DNA of 38,493 nt from Chlamydiae bacterium CG10_big_fil_rev_8_21_14_0_10_35_9 (lineage in GTDB: Bacteria; Chlamydiota; Chlamydiia; Chlamydiales; SM23-39), in NCBI GenBank assembly GCA_002773835.1, contig PFAC01000029.1, forward strand, positions 1-38,493, read 5' to 3'. A program made the translations under genes and the position numbers. The first letter of the stretch is position 1, and every line of letters begins with the position of its first letter. Shown here piece after piece: positions 7,218 to 26,918 of the stretch. Under the pieces are notes generated by a model that saw nothing but the letters and a program-made list of their open reading frames with translations, was not told the origin of the DNA and did not search any database.

Positions 7218-7685
7218 TTACTCACCTTCTTTTTTTGACGCCATGAGAACTTCAAGTTCCTTCCTTCTTGCTTGCGTTTCTTCTTGCGCTTTTTCTAAGG
7301 TTGCTTTTGCCGATTCACATAATATTGTCGCTCCAGGCATATCTACATTGGGACGAATTTCGCTTACTCTCTTTGCTGTTTCTCTCAAGCGTTCTGCATC
7401 AGCTAAATTAGATGCTGCACATGCTTCGGCGTATTGCGCTTCAGTTAGATGAGTTATTGCAGATAATACTGCTTGTCTTTCTTTTTCTGTTTGGCCTTCT
7501 TCTCTTTCTGCTTTTTTTGTTTTCATTAGAGCAACCATTCCCTCTAGAGCTGTTAAAGACGATTGTATGGCTGAAATTTGCGCATCAAACACTGCTTTTC
7601 GTGACTCTGCATGATCTACTGAGGCTGATCGAGCAACTGGGGCTGGTTGTCCCCTAATAGATATAAAACTTGCTTGTGCTGACAT
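7218..7685 (-). CDS. Uncharacterised Ala/Glu-rich coiled-coil protein
   Basis: I do not recognise this 155-residue protein. The first 25 or so residues are low-complexity (Ala, Ser, Pro, Arg). The rest is almost entirely predicted helix, rich in Ala, Glu, Lys and Arg with heptad-like spacing, broken once by 'IRPNVDMPGATI' near residue 112. There is no signal peptide or membrane segment. A good purine-rich box (AGAGAG) precedes the ATG and a terminator follows the stop, so it appears to be a real, monocistronic gene. Such orphan coiled-coil proteins are common in intracellular bacteria and are sometimes secreted effectors, but nothing in the sequence shows secretion. Confidence 0.7.
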   Translation of the reverse strand: MSAQASFISIRGQPAPVARSASVDHAESRKAVFDAQISAIQSSLTALEGMVALMKTKKAEREEGQTEKERQAVLSAITHLTEAQYAEACAASNLADAERLRETAKRVSEIRPNVDMPGATILCESAKATLEKAQEETQARRKELEVLMASKKEGE

Positions 7686-17412: not shown

Positions 17413-18624
17413 ATGAAGACAAAATATACAACTCTTGGACTTTTATTAGCCTTATCCTTAGGTCTTTTTTCGGGGTATTTTCACTTTACTGCTACTGACT
17501 ATGCTGCAAAAGCACTATCCAGTTTATTTATGAATTTTTTACAGATGATCTCTGTACCTATTGTCTTTTTATCAATAACAGCAACTGTGACTAAAATGGA
17601 AAGCTTATCAGAAATGAAAAGCTTTGGTATGAAGATCATCAAGTATACTCTTATTACTACTCTCATCGCAGCAACGATTGCTCTACTTCTATATTTAGGA
17701 CTGGATCCGGCGCAAACCTCTATTGAAACTTCGAATAGTATTACAACAACGCCACAAGGCGGGTATTTAGATGCTTTACAAAAGATCGTTCCCTCGAACT
17801 TGTTTCAAGCATTTGGGGAAAACAATGTAATTGGTGTGGCCTTTTTTGCTTTTGTATTAAGCTTTGCCATTCTCCTTCTTCCAAAAAATAATAAAGAGAC
17901 TCTACATCACTTTTTCTCCTCTTTATTTTCTGCGTTTTTAAAATTGGCTGGCTTTATCGTAAAGCTGCTGCCTTTAGCCATATGGGCATTTACAACTTTA
18001 TTAGTACAAGATCTTCTTTCTAAAGAAGTTTCTTTTAAGGTTTTAGGTCTTTATATTGCATGTATTGTGGGAGCAAACCTAATTCAAGGAGTGGTTGTTT
18101 TACCTCTAATATTACTTATCAAAAAGAACTCTCCTAGAAAGCTGTTTAAAGCTATGTCAGAGGCCCTGCTTATTGCTTTTTTTACCAAATCTTCTAATGC
18201 AGCCTTGCCAGTATCCATGAAATGCGCTGAAGAAAAGTATGGCATGTCTTCTAAAGTCTGCAGCATTTCTTTTCCTTTATGCTCAGTAATTAATATGAAT
18301 GCTTGTGCGGCTTTCATACTTATTACTACCCTATTTGTCTCAGCTCACAGTGGCATGACTTTTTCCCCATTTGAACTTTTAGGATGGGTTCTTATCTCAA
18401 CAGTTGCAGCAATTGGCAATGCAGGTGTTCCTATGGGATGTTATTTCTTATCAACTGCGCTTCTTACTTCTATGGGTGTCCCGCTTCATATAATGGGGTT
18501 AATACTGCCTATCTACGCCTTTTTAGATATGTTAGAAACTGCTATTAACGTTTGGTCTGATGCTTGTATCGCTGCCAACGTTGACAAAGAAATCAAGGAA
18601 GCGGCAGCCGTTGAAATGGCATAG
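17413..18624 (+). CDS. Dicarboxylate/amino acid:cation symporter (DAACS, GltPh fold)
   Basis: Elevator-type secondary carrier of 403 residues. 'FLQMISVPIVFLSI' is the TM3 signature, 'FFTKSSNAALPVSMKCAEE' is hairpin 1 with its serine-rich tip, 'INMNACA' stands for the TM7 NMDG motif, 'GNAGVPMGCYFLS' is hairpin 2, and 'LDMLETAINVWSDACIA' is TM8. Compared with the aspartate carrier GltPh, the TM8 Arg that binds the acidic side chain is Glu, and the sodium-binding Asp of NMDG is Asn. It is therefore unlikely to be a plain glutamate/aspartate carrier; a neutral or basic substrate is more likely. It is probably monocistronic, with convergent genes downstream. Confidence 0.92.
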   Translation: MKTKYTTLGLLLALSLGLFSGYFHFTATDYAAKALSSLFMNFLQMISVPIVFLSITATVTKMESLSEMKSFGMKIIKYTLITTLIAATIALLLYLGLDPAQTSIETSNSITTTPQGGYLDALQKIVPSNLFQAFGENNVIGVAFFAFVLSFAILLLPKNNKETLHHFFSSLFSAFLKLAGFIVKLLPLAIWAFTTLLVQDLLSKEVSFKVLGLYIACIVGANLIQGVVVLPLILLIKKNSPRKLFKAMSEALLIAFFTKSSNAALPVSMKCAEEKYGMSSKVCSISFPLCSVINMNACAAFILITTLFVSAHSGMTFSPFELLGWVLISTVAAIGNAGVPMGCYFLSTALLTSMGVPLHIMGLILPIYAFLDMLETAINVWSDACIAANVDKEIKEAAAVEMA

Positions 18625-18643: not shown

Positions 18644-19348
18644 TTAGTTAATTAGAGATGACTCTCTTTCGCTATTTAAAGAAGCTTCTGCCCCTTCACT
18701 AGCTGCTGCATTATCTGTAAGCCTTACATTTTCTAACCAAAGATCCATATTATTCCTTGTAAGGTTAAGAATTTGAGCTCTAGCTCTAGTAAGTTCAGCA
18801 TCAACTCTAGTAACTTCAGCTCTTATGCGATCTACTTCTGCTTCGGCATCTCTTAGCCTAACTAACTCAGCTCTTCTAGTGACTAGAGTTCTTTGCCTAG
18901 CGCGGAAAAACTTACGCCTAATAACTCCCACGTATATTTCAATACGATTTGTATCTTCTGCATTATTACAAGCTCGCTTGACCTTTTGAAGAACTCGAAA
19001 AGCTACTTGAGTTATTTCATTTTTTACATCAAAGCCTAGCTGATCATCCTCAAGAAAGTCTTCCTGCCCAGGGAACAAGTGAATAGCTTGAGAAGTTAGG
19101 CAATCAAAATTTCTAGCTGTATTAATCCTATCAGAATTTAAAGTAAAAAATTTCCCAAAAACATAATAAAATATCCGTTGAACCACTCGAACAACTTTCG
19201 AAGTTTTCTGTTCTATTTGTGGTACAGTCACTCTATGGCGGATTCCCCTTACTACGAGCTCTTTTTGAGCAAAAGTAACGTGTGAAGAATTTAAATCTAT
19301 ACGGGAGAGGTCCTGCAGCGCCTTTTTATAGTGTTCAATGGTTATCAT
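18644..19348 (-). CDS. Tandem coiled-coil family protein, copy 1
   Basis: Unrecognised 234-residue protein, one of three neighbouring paralogues. Residues 1-135 form the shared domain: 'MITIEHYKKALQDLSRIDL', 'VPQIEQKTSKVVRVVQRIF', 'VFGKFFTLNSDR', 'DDQLGFDVKNEITQVAFRV' and 'LQKVKRACN'. The C-terminal part is a predicted coiled coil with repeated R-A-E-V/D-x-T units, followed by a Ser/Ala/Glu-rich tail absent from the other copies. No signal peptide and no convincing membrane helix. There is no ribosome binding site near the ATG. It is the most diverged copy and its leader lacks the box shared by copies 2 and 3. Confidence 0.75.
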   Translation of the reverse strand: MITIEHYKKALQDLSRIDLNSSHVTFAQKELVVRGIRHRVTVPQIEQKTSKVVRVVQRIFYYVFGKFFTLNSDRINTARNFDCLTSQAIHLFPGQEDFLEDDQLGFDVKNEITQVAFRVLQKVKRACNNAEDTNRIEIYVGVIRRKFFRARQRTLVTRRAELVRLRDAEAEVDRIRAEVTRVDAELTRARAQILNLTRNNMDLWLENVRLTDNAAASEGAEASLNSERESSLIN

Positions 19349-19381
19349 ATTTAAATTAGCTTCAGTCCTTTCTCTAGCTCG

Positions 19382-20020
19382 TCACCCCTCTACCCTAACT
19401 TCACCTCTAAGTCTAGTGACTTCATTTATAAGGTTAGCAATGTCAGCTCTTGCACTACTAAGCTCACTTCGAACTATAGCAATTTCAGCTATTGCAGAAT
19501 CTCTTTGACTTTCGACAATAGCAAGTCTAAGTGCCTCATCTCCTCTAGCATCTTCTGCAGTTTGCCGTCTAGCTTCGGAAAATCTATTCCTGATATCTGT
19601 TTGCACTTGCTGAATAGAACTTCTTCCTTGCTCGGTATTACAAACTCGCTTGATTTTCTGAAGGACTTGCAAAGCAACTTGAGTTACTTCATTTTTTAGA
19701 TCAAAACCTAACTGGATGTCATCAAGTAAGTCTTCCCGTCCATAAAACAAATCAATGGTATCAGAAGTTAGTCGATCAAGGCTTCTAGCAGTATCTAACC
19801 TACCTGAATCTAAATTAAAAAGTTTTCCAAAGATATTAGAAAATATCCGCTGGAACAATTGAATGATTTTGTAAGTTTTCTGTTCTATCTTTGGTACAGT
19901 AACCCAATGCTGCACCCCTTGTAATGTAAGTTCTTCACGAGAAAAAGTAACACGTGAAGTGGCTAAGTCCATATTTGAGAAGTCTTGAAGAGCCCTTGTA
20001 TATCTTTCAACAGTAATCAT
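19382..20020 (-). CDS. Tandem coiled-coil family protein, copy 2
   Basis: Unrecognised 212-residue paralogue. I start at ATG 20020, where 'MITVERYTRALQDFSNMDL' lines up with the other two copies; the 19-residue extension from 20077 is not shared. The conserved blocks are 'SRVTFSREEL', 'VPKIEQKTYKIIQLFQRIF', 'IFGKLFNLDSGRLDTARSL', 'IQLGFDLKNEVTQVALQV' and 'LQKIKRVCN'. The tail is a coiled coil ending 'VTRLRGEVRVEG'. It follows copy 3 after a spacer of about 245 bases and precedes copy 1 after 33 bases. The 30 bases before the start closely match those before copy 3 but contain no Shine-Dalgarno sequence. Confidence 0.75.
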   Translation of the reverse strand: MITVERYTRALQDFSNMDLATSRVTFSREELTLQGVQHWVTVPKIEQKTYKIIQLFQRIFSNIFGKLFNLDSGRLDTARSLDRLTSDTIDLFYGREDLLDDIQLGFDLKNEVTQVALQVLQKIKRVCNTEQGRSSIQQVQTDIRNRFSEARRQTAEDARGDEALRLAIVESQRDSAIAEIAIVRSELSSARADIANLINEVTRLRGEVRVEG

Positions 20021-20150
20021 ATCGTAAAATGTCCAATTTGTTTTTTTTGCAAAATTTTTAAACCAAATAAGATACAAAAAAAAACAATATTGTTAATAAC
20101 AAAAAATCAAAAAATTATCATAACTTTATCTAGAAGCAGTTTGCGAAGAA

Positions 20151-20182
20151 ATTGTTATTACAACGCTAAGTTGTGTAACAAT
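20151..20182 (-). terminator. Hairpin downstream of coiled-coil copy 3
   Basis: Arms ATTGTTATTACAAC (20151-20164) and GTTGTGTAACAAT (20170-20182) pair with one bulge around a 5-base loop. Read on the minus strand it lies about 85 bases after the copy 3 stop and is followed by TTTCTTC. It is a plausible but weak terminator; it could equally be a regulatory hairpin in the 245-base spacer, in which I see no gene. Confidence 0.4.
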
Positions 20183-20265
20183 GTAGAGTGGAGCCATAGG
20201 TTACAAGATCTGTGCCTTGGACTTTGTTAGTTCTTTCTTAAGTTCAGATTTATTTAATCTGTTTT

Positions 20266-20910
20266 TTATCTATTGCGGTATTTAAAGCAACAGCAGCTTT
20301 TTATCCAGCCTCCTTCAACATTTCTTAGGCGAGCAATTTCAGCTTGAGCTCTAGTTAATTCAGCTTGAACCCTATCAGCTTCATTTCTTGCAACTTCGCT
20401 TCTACATTCTGCATATCTACGCAGACTCACTTCAAGGTCTTTTTCATCTACAATTAGTTGCCTGTTGAAGCGATATTCCCTTCTAATATTTTCCTGACAT
20501 TGATCAATAAGATTTATATTTTCCGGACTATTAGAAACCCGCTTGATCTTTTGAAGAATTTGAAAAGCGACATAAGTGACTCTATTCTTTAAATCAAAAC
20601 CTAGCTGAGCATCATCTAGTCTGTCTAGCCCTCCACGAAATAGATTAATTGTAGTAACTATATTGTTAAGATTGTTAACTGTGTCTAGCCTAGAGGGCTC
20701 TAAATCAAAAAATTTCCCAAAAACACTATGAAATATTTGTTGGAGCAGTTGAATAATTTTATGAAGTTTTTGTTCTATTTTCGGCATAGCAACCCAAAAA
20801 CGTATTCTTTCTCCCACAAATTCTTCGCGGGAAAAAGTAACACGTGAATTACCTAAGTCCATATTTGCGAAATCTTGAAGGGCTCTTTTATAGCGTTCAA
20901 TGGTTATCAT
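20266..20910 (-). CDS. Tandem coiled-coil family protein, copy 3, with C-terminal Cys cluster
   Basis: Unrecognised 214-residue paralogue of the two genes downstream. It shares 'MITIERYKRALQDFANMDL', 'SRVTFSREEF', 'MPKIEQKLHKIIQLLQQIF', 'VFGKFFDLEPSRLDT', 'DDAQLGFDLKNRVTYVAFQI' and 'LQKIKRVSN', then a coiled coil with 'ADRVQAELTRAQAEIARLR'. It alone ends in 'GGWIKSCCCFKYRNR', three cysteines flanked by basic and aromatic residues, which looks like a site for lipid attachment or metal binding. No signal peptide. The leader (20911-20940) resembles that of copy 2. Confidence 0.75.
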   Translation of the reverse strand: MITIERYKRALQDFANMDLGNSRVTFSREEFVGERIRFWVAMPKIEQKLHKIIQLLQQIFHSVFGKFFDLEPSRLDTVNNLNNIVTTINLFRGGLDRLDDAQLGFDLKNRVTYVAFQILQKIKRVSNSPENINLIDQCQENIRREYRFNRQLIVDEKDLEVSLRRYAECRSEVARNEADRVQAELTRAQAEIARLRNVEGGWIKSCCCFKYRNR

Positions 20911-21000
20911 AACGTAAAGTAGACAATTTATTTTTTTGTGAGGGTTTTAAACTGTTCAAGCAATAAAATAAACACTTTAAGCATGTCAATATTTTAGAAC

Positions 21001-21732
21001 TCAATTTTTATTACAGTTACAGTTTAACTCAGACTGCGGTGATCTTTTTAAAAATTGATAAATTAAGCCGTAGGCTTTTTTGCTAAATATAATTGTTTTG
21101 TGCCCTCGCTTTATCACTACATGCTTGTGAGGAGTTGACAAGGAGGTTTCACTTATCGCAAGAGTTCCATCATTTTTTTCTTTAAGGAGAGGATTAAAAC
21201 CCAAGCTCCCTGCAATTACTAAAACACCTTCTAATGAACTCGGATACTTCCCTAAATCATCAAAACTAGTTTTTGTGATAAGTTCGTGCCCTGAGAATTG
21301 CTTAGTAATCCACCTTGTCAGTGAAAAACGACCTGCCCATCTTCCCCAATAACTTCCTTTTAAAGGAGGCGCAAGTAAAATAACCTTACCAATTTTTGCT
21401 TCATAAGGACACGATGGATCGTTTAAGGCCGCTAATAAAACCAATCCTCCCATCGAATGAGCCACAAAATGAATAGGCTGGTCCGGCTTATCCTTTACTA
21501 GACTTGTTAAATAAGAAACTAGCTCCTTTGCATGTTCTCTAATAAACCGATCCCTACTTGGATACTTCCAACTAACTGAGTCCCACCCATCTTTTCTAAG
21601 GTTTTTCTTAAAAAGGTGCATATTCCAGGAAGAACCCATAAATCCATGAATACATACTACATGGTCCTTTTTAGCTTCAGAAAAAATAGAAGATGCTAGA
21701 AAAATAAAAAAAAGTAATAACTTTTTATACAA
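21001..21732 (-). CDS. Exported alpha/beta hydrolase, lipase-like, TTG start
   Basis: Secreted or periplasmic hydrolase of 243 residues. The signal peptide spans about residues 1-20 (YKK, hydrophobic run, 'FSEA'). 'CIHGFMGSSWNM' is the oxyanion loop and 'AHSMGG' gives nucleophile Ser93. The acid is probably in 'NDGTLAISET' and the base in 'RGHKTIIF', as in small triacylglycerol lipases and PGAP1-like esterases. The start is TTG, since an in-frame stop lies two codons upstream and the next Met is inside the fold. Cysteines cluster at the C-terminus ('NCNCN'). It follows the unknown 270-residue gene after about 100 bases. Confidence 0.85.
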   Translation of the reverse strand: MYKKLLLFFIFLASSIFSEAKKDHVVCIHGFMGSSWNMHLFKKNLRKDGWDSVSWKYPSRDRFIREHAKELVSYLTSLVKDKPDQPIHFVAHSMGGLVLLAALNDPSCPYEAKIGKVILLAPPLKGSYWGRWAGRFSLTRWITKQFSGHELITKTSFDDLGKYPSSLEGVLVIAGSLGFNPLLKEKNDGTLAISETSLSTPHKHVVIKRGHKTIIFSKKAYGLIYQFLKRSPQSELNCNCNKN

Positions 21733-21835: not shown

Positions 21836-22648
21836 TTAGCTGACTTTCACCCATGCTGCTGAGGAAGCTGAATTCTCTGTTATAAAAGGTTTTTGTGTTG
21901 TTAAAATGATGCGCTTTTTTAGCGCTTTTTCACGTATCATTTTTGATAAAGGAAGGTGGGGGTCTACAAATACAAGGGAGCGCCACGGCAGTTGCTGACT
22001 TTTTAAAAACATTAATGAAGTATCATTATTTTCATCGAATGTTGTTGTTTTTAAGAAACATGCTCGAACAGTCCAATTATTTATCTTTAAAACAGTTAAA
22101 GTATCATGCGAAACTAAAATATCACTAAGTGAAGCAGTTTGAAATCTATAAAGCTCTTTTTGGTTCCCCCATAAATTTACCCAAAAGGTTCTATTAGGCA
22201 AAGTATTTGGATAGGAAGAGTGAACAAATAACCAAAGAATTGAATATCGAGATAAATTATCAGGGCCTATAACTATTGAATCGTCAGCTTTGTTAGTCTC
22301 TGGTAATATTCCATCTAAACAAAATGACTCAAGCCCGAGGATCAATAAATCCTCCTCTTTATTAATAAGCGGTCTACCATCAGATATATTTCCTTTTTGA
22401 GAAGTTGAGAAGCTATTTAATTTTAGATGACCTTCCCCAGAAAAATGGCAGGAATAGTGAGCTTTACTAAGATCATCATCACACCCAGTAGTGACATTAA
22501 GCATTTTTCTTTTGCTTTTTCCACAGTCAAGGTTATAGTAAATATCTAATTCGCCATTTTCAAATTTACCACGAAAATTGCCTATCGCTATAGATGATTT
22601 CTCCTTCCTTAAAGCTATTTTAACTTTTTCAATAATTACTTCTTCCAA
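21836..22648 (-). CDS. Uncharacterised protein, TTG start
   Basis: I do not recognise this 270-residue protein. It has no signal peptide or membrane segment and looks mixed alpha/beta, with mostly beta character in the middle ('ELDIYYNLDCGKSK', 'HYSCHFSGEGHLKL', 'TFWVNLWGNQKELYRF'). Near the end a Lys/Arg-rich helix ('MIREKALKKRI') precedes a Ser/Ala tail. The start is TTG, just after a strong GGGAGG box; there is no in-frame ATG near the beginning. It sits 49 bases after the dienelactone-hydrolase-like gene and may share its transcript. The lack of export signals sets it apart from its three exported neighbours. Confidence 0.7.
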   Translation of the reverse strand: MEEVIIEKVKIALRKEKSSIAIGNFRGKFENGELDIYYNLDCGKSKRKMLNVTTGCDDDLSKAHYSCHFSGEGHLKLNSFSTSQKGNISDGRPLINKEEDLLILGLESFCLDGILPETNKADDSIVIGPDNLSRYSILWLFVHSSYPNTLPNRTFWVNLWGNQKELYRFQTASLSDILVSHDTLTVLKINNWTVRACFLKTTTFDENNDTSLMFLKSQQLPWRSLVFVDPHLPLSKMIREKALKKRIILTTQKPFITENSASSAAWVKVS

Positions 22649-25865: not shown

Positions 25866-26918
25866 ATGTTTAAATATCTTCCAGTATTAGCACTTTTATG
25901 CGCTCCTCTTTTTGCTTCATGGGATTGCCCTGGAAAAAAAGAGGTAAAAGTATACAACTCATCTATTGATGACTCCGACCTTTTTAGAAAATGTGAAGAG
26001 ATCGTTTTTATAAATGCCGAATATCTTCTCTGGAATGTAAGGCAAAATACACTCGATTATGCCCTTTATTCTGAAAGTCCTGCTAGAAATAACTCTGATA
26101 GCCTACTCGCCAGTGGAAAGTTTCAAAGAGCAGGTTTTGGATTTGACTCTGGATATAGATTTTCACTAGGATACTTTAATGCTCCAAAGTATTGGGAGCT
26201 TAAAGCTCAGTATGCCTGGCTGTATAGTAAAGCAAATGACAGCATTAGCTCCTCGAGTAATCACTTTTTAATTGGCACATTTCCACAGCTTTTGAGTAGA
26301 TCTCTCGTAGAAGCGACTAGTTTAGCGCAGCTGCATTATCATGTTGCAGACTTTCTCATAGATCGGGTTTTTCATCCCAACCCTCATCTGAAATTACGGT
26401 TATATGCAGGGATTACTGGAGCATTTTTTAATCAAAAATGGAAAGTCCGTTATCTAGATGTGATTAACAATACAACGACCACCACTAATAACTGGAACTT
26501 TAACGGTGTAGGTTTTAGGACGGGTGTTTCATTTGACTGGTTTTGGAGAAAAGATGTTTATATTACAGGAATCATGACTTTTGCAAACTTGGTGGGAAAA
26601 TACAAAAATCGATCGACTTCTATAACAACTGAAAACTTATCAGGATCAGATGATATTTCCATTCCCGTTGGAAATACTTCATATGAAGATTGGAGGCTCA
26701 GCTTTAACACTCAATTTCTAGCAGGTCCCTCTTATCAAAGATGCTTTCAAAAATGCCGCTTTGAAATATTTGCCGGATATGAATTGAACATTTGGACAAA
26801 TGTACTAGATGTATTCAGATCTACTTTTGGAACTGCTAGCCAAAGCAAACAAACTCTTATTAATTCAGGTCTTCTTGGCCTACAAGGATTGACAGTAAGA
26901 GTTAATGTAGATTTTTAA
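25866..26918 (+). CDS. Major outer membrane protein-like beta-barrel (chlamydia/legionella type)
   Basis: Secreted barrel of 350 residues. A signal peptide (about 1-17, 'LLCAPLFA') is followed by 'SWDCPGKKEV'; 'VFINAEYLLWNVRQN' is the first strand region that is typical of the chlamydial and Legionella MOMP-like porin family (Lpg1974 type). Alternating aromatic strands follow and the chain ends in Phe ('VRVNVDF'), the outer-membrane assembly signal. A few cysteines (in 'DCPGK', 'RKCEE' and 'QRCFQKCRFE') could form disulfides as in chlamydial MOMP. AGGTG precedes the ATG, and the gene stands alone after a 100-base AT-rich leader. This is the strongest taxonomic clue in the window. Confidence 0.85.
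   Translation: MFKYLPVLALLCAPLFASWDCPGKKEVKVYNSSIDDSDLFRKCEEIVFINAEYLLWNVRQNTLDYALYSESPARNNSDSLLASGKFQRAGFGFDSGYRFSLGYFNAPKYWELKAQYAWLYSKANDSISSSSNHFLIGTFPQLLSRSLVEATSLAQLHYHVADFLIDRVFHPNPHLKLRLYAGITGAFFNQKWKVRYLDVINNTTTTTNNWNFNGVGFRTGVSFDWFWRKDVYITGIMTFANLVGKYKNRSTSITTENLSGSDDISIPVGNTSYEDWRLSFNTQFLAGPSYQRCFQKCRFEIFAGYELNIWTNVLDVFRSTFGTASQSKQTLINSGLLGLQGLTVRVNVDF

What the first reader, a model, noticed from the sequence alone, without database searches (positions are those of the whole stretch)
18644..20910. Three tandem, diverged copies of an unrecognised coiled-coil family
Seen: a conserved N-terminal domain of about 135 residues (MITIERY, VPKIEQK, FGKFF, QLGFDLKN, LQKIKR blocks) with rapidly diverging coiled-coil tails. 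No export signal or known domain. Conserved heads with variable tails are typical of lineage-specific, host-facing or scaffold families in intracellular bacteria; this is inference.
Basis: partly seen in the sequence, partly recalled or inferred. Interest (0 to 1): 0.6.

Follow-up and report, generated by a model that had tools for sequence, protein, structure and literature searches.

The report
Orphan chlamydial tandem coiled-coil gene family
An uncultured chlamydia carries three side-by-side, diverged copies of a gene of no known family whose front part is conserved and reappears in one other chlamydia fused to a completely different back part, which makes it a candidate (not proven) delivery or targeting module of a host-facing protein family.

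Summary
Three minus-strand genes (18644-19348, 19382-20020, 20266-20910) encode paralogues with a ~128-residue head (51-64% identical) and coiled-coil-like tails (27-38%). Heads are under purifying selection (dN/dS 0.28-0.46); tails are near 1 (0.8-1.1), an estimate that depends on their alignment. No Pfam, NCBIfam, PHROG, PDB-sequence or fold match was found. In 234 Chlamydiota genomes the head occurs in only one other genome (MGMD01000008.1, an aquifer MAG placed in the same family). There it is at the N-terminus of a 473-aa protein with an unrelated C-terminus (gapless head match, z 13-15; tail at chance level). So the head is a portable N-terminal module. The model gives helix, beta-hairpin, amphipathic helix, two helices, then one long helix (pLDDT 72, pTM 0.43). 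There is no bilobal transmembrane domain, so these are not Inc proteins, and the head is not detectably related to DUF648 heads. Best explanation: a lineage-restricted, host-facing family with the head as secretion/membrane-targeting module and the tail as partner-binding rod. Secretion was not tested. The array looks partly eroded: a single in-frame TGA lies between copies B and A, and copy C seems to have a shortened tail.

The parts
20266..20910 (-). copy C, 214 aa; head = residues 1-127, coiled-coil-like tail, ends GGWIKSCCCFKYRNR
19382..20020 (-). copy B, 212 aa; ATG at 20020 aligns with the starts of the paralogues (a TTG 57 bases upstream gives a longer ORF, judged not the start)
18644..19348 (-). 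copy A, 234 aa; longest tail
19349..19384 (-). junction between B and A: one TGA then 11 sense codons in the same frame up to A's ATG; ARERTEANLN resembles A's own tail end ASEGAEASLN (0.65% of shuffles reach the score)
20201..20263 (-). possible remnant of a longer tail of copy C, out of frame after its stop (NRLNKSELKKELTKSKAQIL, resembles ELTRARAQIL of A)
   Evidence: 0/400 shuffles for the 140 bases after the stop, 2/400 for the whole 245-base gap; suggestive only
20911..20952 (-). leader of copy C, weakly like that of copy B (20021-20062); A has no such leader
   Evidence: 51 of 1000 shuffles reach the B-C score, not significant

Best explanation
A small, lineage-restricted chlamydial gene family that arose by tandem duplication. 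The ~125-residue head (helix, beta-hairpin with V-x-x-P-x-(I/L)-E-x-K, amphipathic helix ~44-67, two more helices) is a portable N-terminal module. Most likely it serves export and/or peripheral membrane targeting. The C-terminal part is the exchangeable working part: in this genome a coiled-coil rod that would bind partners or self-associate, in the second genome a different ~340-residue helical region. The most likely setting is host-facing, delivered by the type III system. Shown: paralogy, portable head, unrelated C-terminus in the second genome, contrast in constraint, narrow distribution, presence of an export gate gene. Inferred: membrane binding, secretion, host contact, what the tails bind.
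For: Head found at the N-terminus of two different architectures, gapless over 62-66 residues from residue 2, z 13-15.6, while tail against tail is at chance. Profile E 3.4e-7 before that sequence was in the profile. Head dN/dS 0.28-0.46 against ~1 in tails. High hydrophobic moments in the helix around 43-67 in copies A, B, C and in the second genome. A beta-hairpin followed by this helix in the model. Distribution 2 of 234. FHIPEP/SctV homologue in the own genome. Tandem, lineage-specific families with type III signals are documented in Parachlamydiaceae (PMC4209131).
Against: No secretion signal was tested. There is no eukaryotic-like domain. The second genome's copy is a single sequence, and its model is uninterpretable (pLDDT 42). 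Lineage restriction is also expected of any fast-evolving bacterial protein. The head model is of moderate confidence (pTM 0.43) with its lowest confidence around 61-71 and 93-100.
Confidence: 0.45

Rival explanations
1. An internal bacterial scaffold: the head binds the inner face of the bacterial membrane or a bacterial partner, and the coiled-coil tail oligomerises, for example in developmental-form architecture.
For: Coiled-coil rod with an amphipathic-helix head, no transmembrane helix and no eukaryotic-like domain.
Against: A core scaffold should be conserved among relatives, but 232 of 234 Chlamydiota genomes lack it. The tail is not conserved and is replaced entirely in the second genome.
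Confidence: 0.25
2. A decaying orphan array: a once-useful gene whose extra copies and tails are drifting to pseudogenes.
For: Tail dN/dS near 1. One in-frame TGA between B and A. Possible out-of-frame tail remnant after C.
Against: All three heads stay open and under purifying selection. GC by codon position is coding-like (0.50-0.52, 0.33-0.38, 0.24) in all three.
Confidence: 0.2
3. The head is a very diverged member of a known chlamydial N-terminal head family (Inc or DUF648 type).
For: Same plan: conserved N-terminal head with a membrane-prone segment and variable C-terminus. A DUF648-like gene lies about 7 kb from the relative in the second genome.
Against: Profile-profile probability 0.1% against six DUF648-type heads of the same family. 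No Pfam match. Maximum 19-residue hydropathy 0.89-1.07 in the window copies, so no transmembrane helix.
Confidence: 0.1

Closest known systems
PEX/NEX expanded families of Parachlamydiaceae (PMC4209131)
   Same: Lineage-restricted, tandem arrays, overall purifying selection, conserved N-terminal part with variable C-terminal part
   Different: Those carry F-box, BTB, RING/U-box and LRR domains and number 27-138 copies with a demonstrated type III signal; here three copies, no known domain, secretion untested
Inc proteins (PMC3048545)
   Same: Chlamydia-specific, often coiled-coil, many orphan genes
   Different: The defining bilobal pair of transmembrane helices is absent from the window copies
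DUF648 (PF04890) head proteins
   Same: Short conserved N-terminal head in front of differing C-terminal domains, in the same taxonomic family
   Different: DUF648-type heads have a long hydrophobic segment; no detectable homology
P0004 of Chlamydiae bacterium RIFCSPLOWO2_12_FULL_45_20 (MGMD01000008.1)
   Same: Homologous head
   Different: Unrelated ~340-residue C-terminus instead of a coiled coil; single copy; more hydrophobic helix (19-residue hydropathy 1.97)

Membership tests
Inc proteins | bilobal hydrophobic domain: two transmembrane helices, loop under 30 residues (PMC3048545) | tested here: not met
   maximum 19-residue Kyte-Doolittle mean 1.07, 0.89, 0.95 in the three copies
Inc proteins | type III secretion and location in the inclusion membrane | not testable with these tools
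   needs experiment; only the presence of an FHIPEP/SctV homologue was shown
DUF648 (PF04890) | match to the Pfam profile or homology to DUF648 heads | tested here: not met
   no Pfam hit; hhalign probability 0.1% against six DUF648-type heads
PEX/NEX-type expanded effector families | ubiquitination-related domain (F-box, BTB, RING/U-box) or LRR | tested here: not met
   no such domain at E up to 1
PEX/NEX-type expanded effector families | lineage-restricted tandem paralogues under purifying selection | tested here: met
   purifying selection in heads only
PEX/NEX-type expanded effector families | functional type III secretion signal | not testable with these tools
   none
anti-phage defence proteins (PADLOC) | match to a PADLOC model | tested here: not met
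   only weak matches, mostly on the coiled-coil part of one copy, best E 0.0067

The most novel reading that the evidence does not exclude
The head is a new fold-level delivery and membrane-targeting module of chlamydiae without transmembrane helices, onto which unrelated C-terminal domains are swapped, i.e. a soluble counterpart of the Inc/DUF648 plan.
Probability: 0.2. Interest if true: 0.6.

Novelty: new member of a known kind. Interest (0 to 1): 0.35.

Why it matters
If the head is a portable export or targeting module, it gives a sequence tag for finding host-facing proteins in uncultured chlamydiae that Inc-type hydropathy screens miss. If not, it is one more orphan family. At present only four heads in two genomes are known, so its reach is narrow.

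Tried and rejected
Weak head matches in six other Chlamydiota genomes (E 0.02-0.05): the longest (L018) lies on the stretch of an acyl-CoA synthetase-like gene; L016 lies in an unrelated 155-aa ORF; the others are short or broken by stops and were not followed further. DUF648 homology, which the architecture suggested, was tested and rejected. Phages, plasmids and viral contigs: nothing. PDB and viral fold searches: only non-significant matches, best E 0.12 and 0.015. Model of the second genome's protein: unusable. C-terminal CCC of copy C as a lipidation-like motif: considered, not claimed, because the end of C may be a frame-shifted tail. Conserved promoter/leader of B and C: not significant; no promoter excess over shuffles.

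Full report
Observation. Three minus-strand ORFs lie tail to head between a convergent dicarboxylate-symporter-like gene ending at 18624 and a same-strand lipase-like gene starting at 21732 (the symporter name rests on my reading of the sequence). They encode 234, 212 and 214 residues. I call them A (18644-19348), B (19382-20020) and C (20266-20910). Searching the genome with B finds only these three places (E 6e-54 to 4e-56 for A and C). The tails are 27-38% identical but truly homologous: no plain or heptad-preserving shuffle out of 1000 reaches the observed score in any pair.

Coding reality and constraint. GC by codon position is coding-like (0.50-0.52, 0.33-0.38, 0.24). Nei-Gojobori dN/dS is 0.31, 0.46 and 0.28 in the heads and 1.06, 0.80 and 1.09 in the tails. 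The tail figures depend on a less certain alignment. The heads are kept by selection; the tails are much less constrained.

What it is. No family of Pfam, NCBIfam, PHROGs or PADLOC and no PDB sequence matches the head convincingly. Most of the weak hits fall on the coiled coil and are what coiled coils give by chance. AlphaFold on the four-sequence alignment gives helix 4-15, strands 22-33 and 36-47, helices 48-67, 74-91 and 102-126 and a single helix 130-211. Mean pLDDT is 72 and pTM 0.43, lowest at 61-71 and 93-100. Foldseek finds nothing significant in PDB or viral models.

Distribution and the key comparison. Of 234 Chlamydiota genomes, one other genome has the head (first found with the three-copy profile at E 3.4e-7). 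It is an aquifer MAG, Chlamydiae bacterium RIFCSPLOWO2_12_FULL_45_20 (listed in PMC5826181). Its 473-aa protein starts with the head, gapless over 62-66 residues from residue 2, with Smith-Waterman z of 13-15.6 against shuffles. Its C-terminus has no similarity to the window tails and no relative in the phylum. So the head is a separate N-terminal module that sits on different C-terminal parts.

Mechanism. The helix at about 44-67 has among the highest hydrophobic moments in all four proteins but is not a transmembrane helix in the window copies (maximum 19-residue hydropathy 1.07); in the second genome it is more hydrophobic (1.97). I infer peripheral membrane contact of the head, with the tail as a partner-binding rod. 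The genome encodes an FHIPEP/SctV homologue split over two contigs, so a type III route probably exists. Whether these proteins use it was not tested. Precedent for tandem, lineage-specific chlamydial families with a type III signal and purifying selection is PMC4209131.

Membership. Inc proteins are defined by a bilobal transmembrane domain (PMC3048545), which is absent here. DUF648 heads occur in the same taxonomic family, and one lies about 7 kb from the second-genome relative, but profile-profile comparison finds no homology. I therefore do not file the family under either.

Erosion. B's TGA is followed in frame by 11 sense codons that run into A's ATG. Those codons resemble A's own tail end (0.65% of shuffles), so B's tail may once have been longer. 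After C's stop an out-of-frame stretch, NRLNKSELKKELTKSKAQIL, resembles the tails (0 of 400 shuffles for the nearest 140 bases, 2 of 400 for the whole gap). Both points are suggestive and could also come from assembly errors. I folded and searched each copy only as it stands.

Verdict. A real, orphan, lineage-restricted tandem family with a portable head. Host-facing function is the most likely reading but remains inference. Interest 0.35.

Noticed in passing
window 21836-22648 (-): 270-aa orphan protein, no Pfam or NCBIfam match, found in none of 27 other genomes of the family searched; a second lineage-restricted gene close to the array.
   Followed up: partly
window 7218-7685 (-): 155-aa Ala/Glu-rich, probably helical protein with no family match.
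   Followed up: partly
window 25866-26918 (+): Protein matching Legionella_OMP (PF05150, E 3e-19), a beta-barrel-type outer membrane protein in a chlamydial genome.
   Followed up: no
L012 16531-17991 (-) and 18262-18993 (-): In the second genome a DUF648-like protein lies next to a partial microbial PARG-domain protein, about 7 kb from the head relative.
   Followed up: no
L038, L040, L043: DUF648-type heads followed by a metallophosphatase-like GDIHGELDGF stretch in relatives, a chlamydial head on a catalytic-looking C-terminus.
   Followed up: no
L012 9591-10127 (-): 178-aa protein with a signal-peptide-like start and GYxxGY repeats (weak FliH/Yae1 similarity), 15 bases upstream of the head relative and probably co-transcribed with it.
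   Followed up: no
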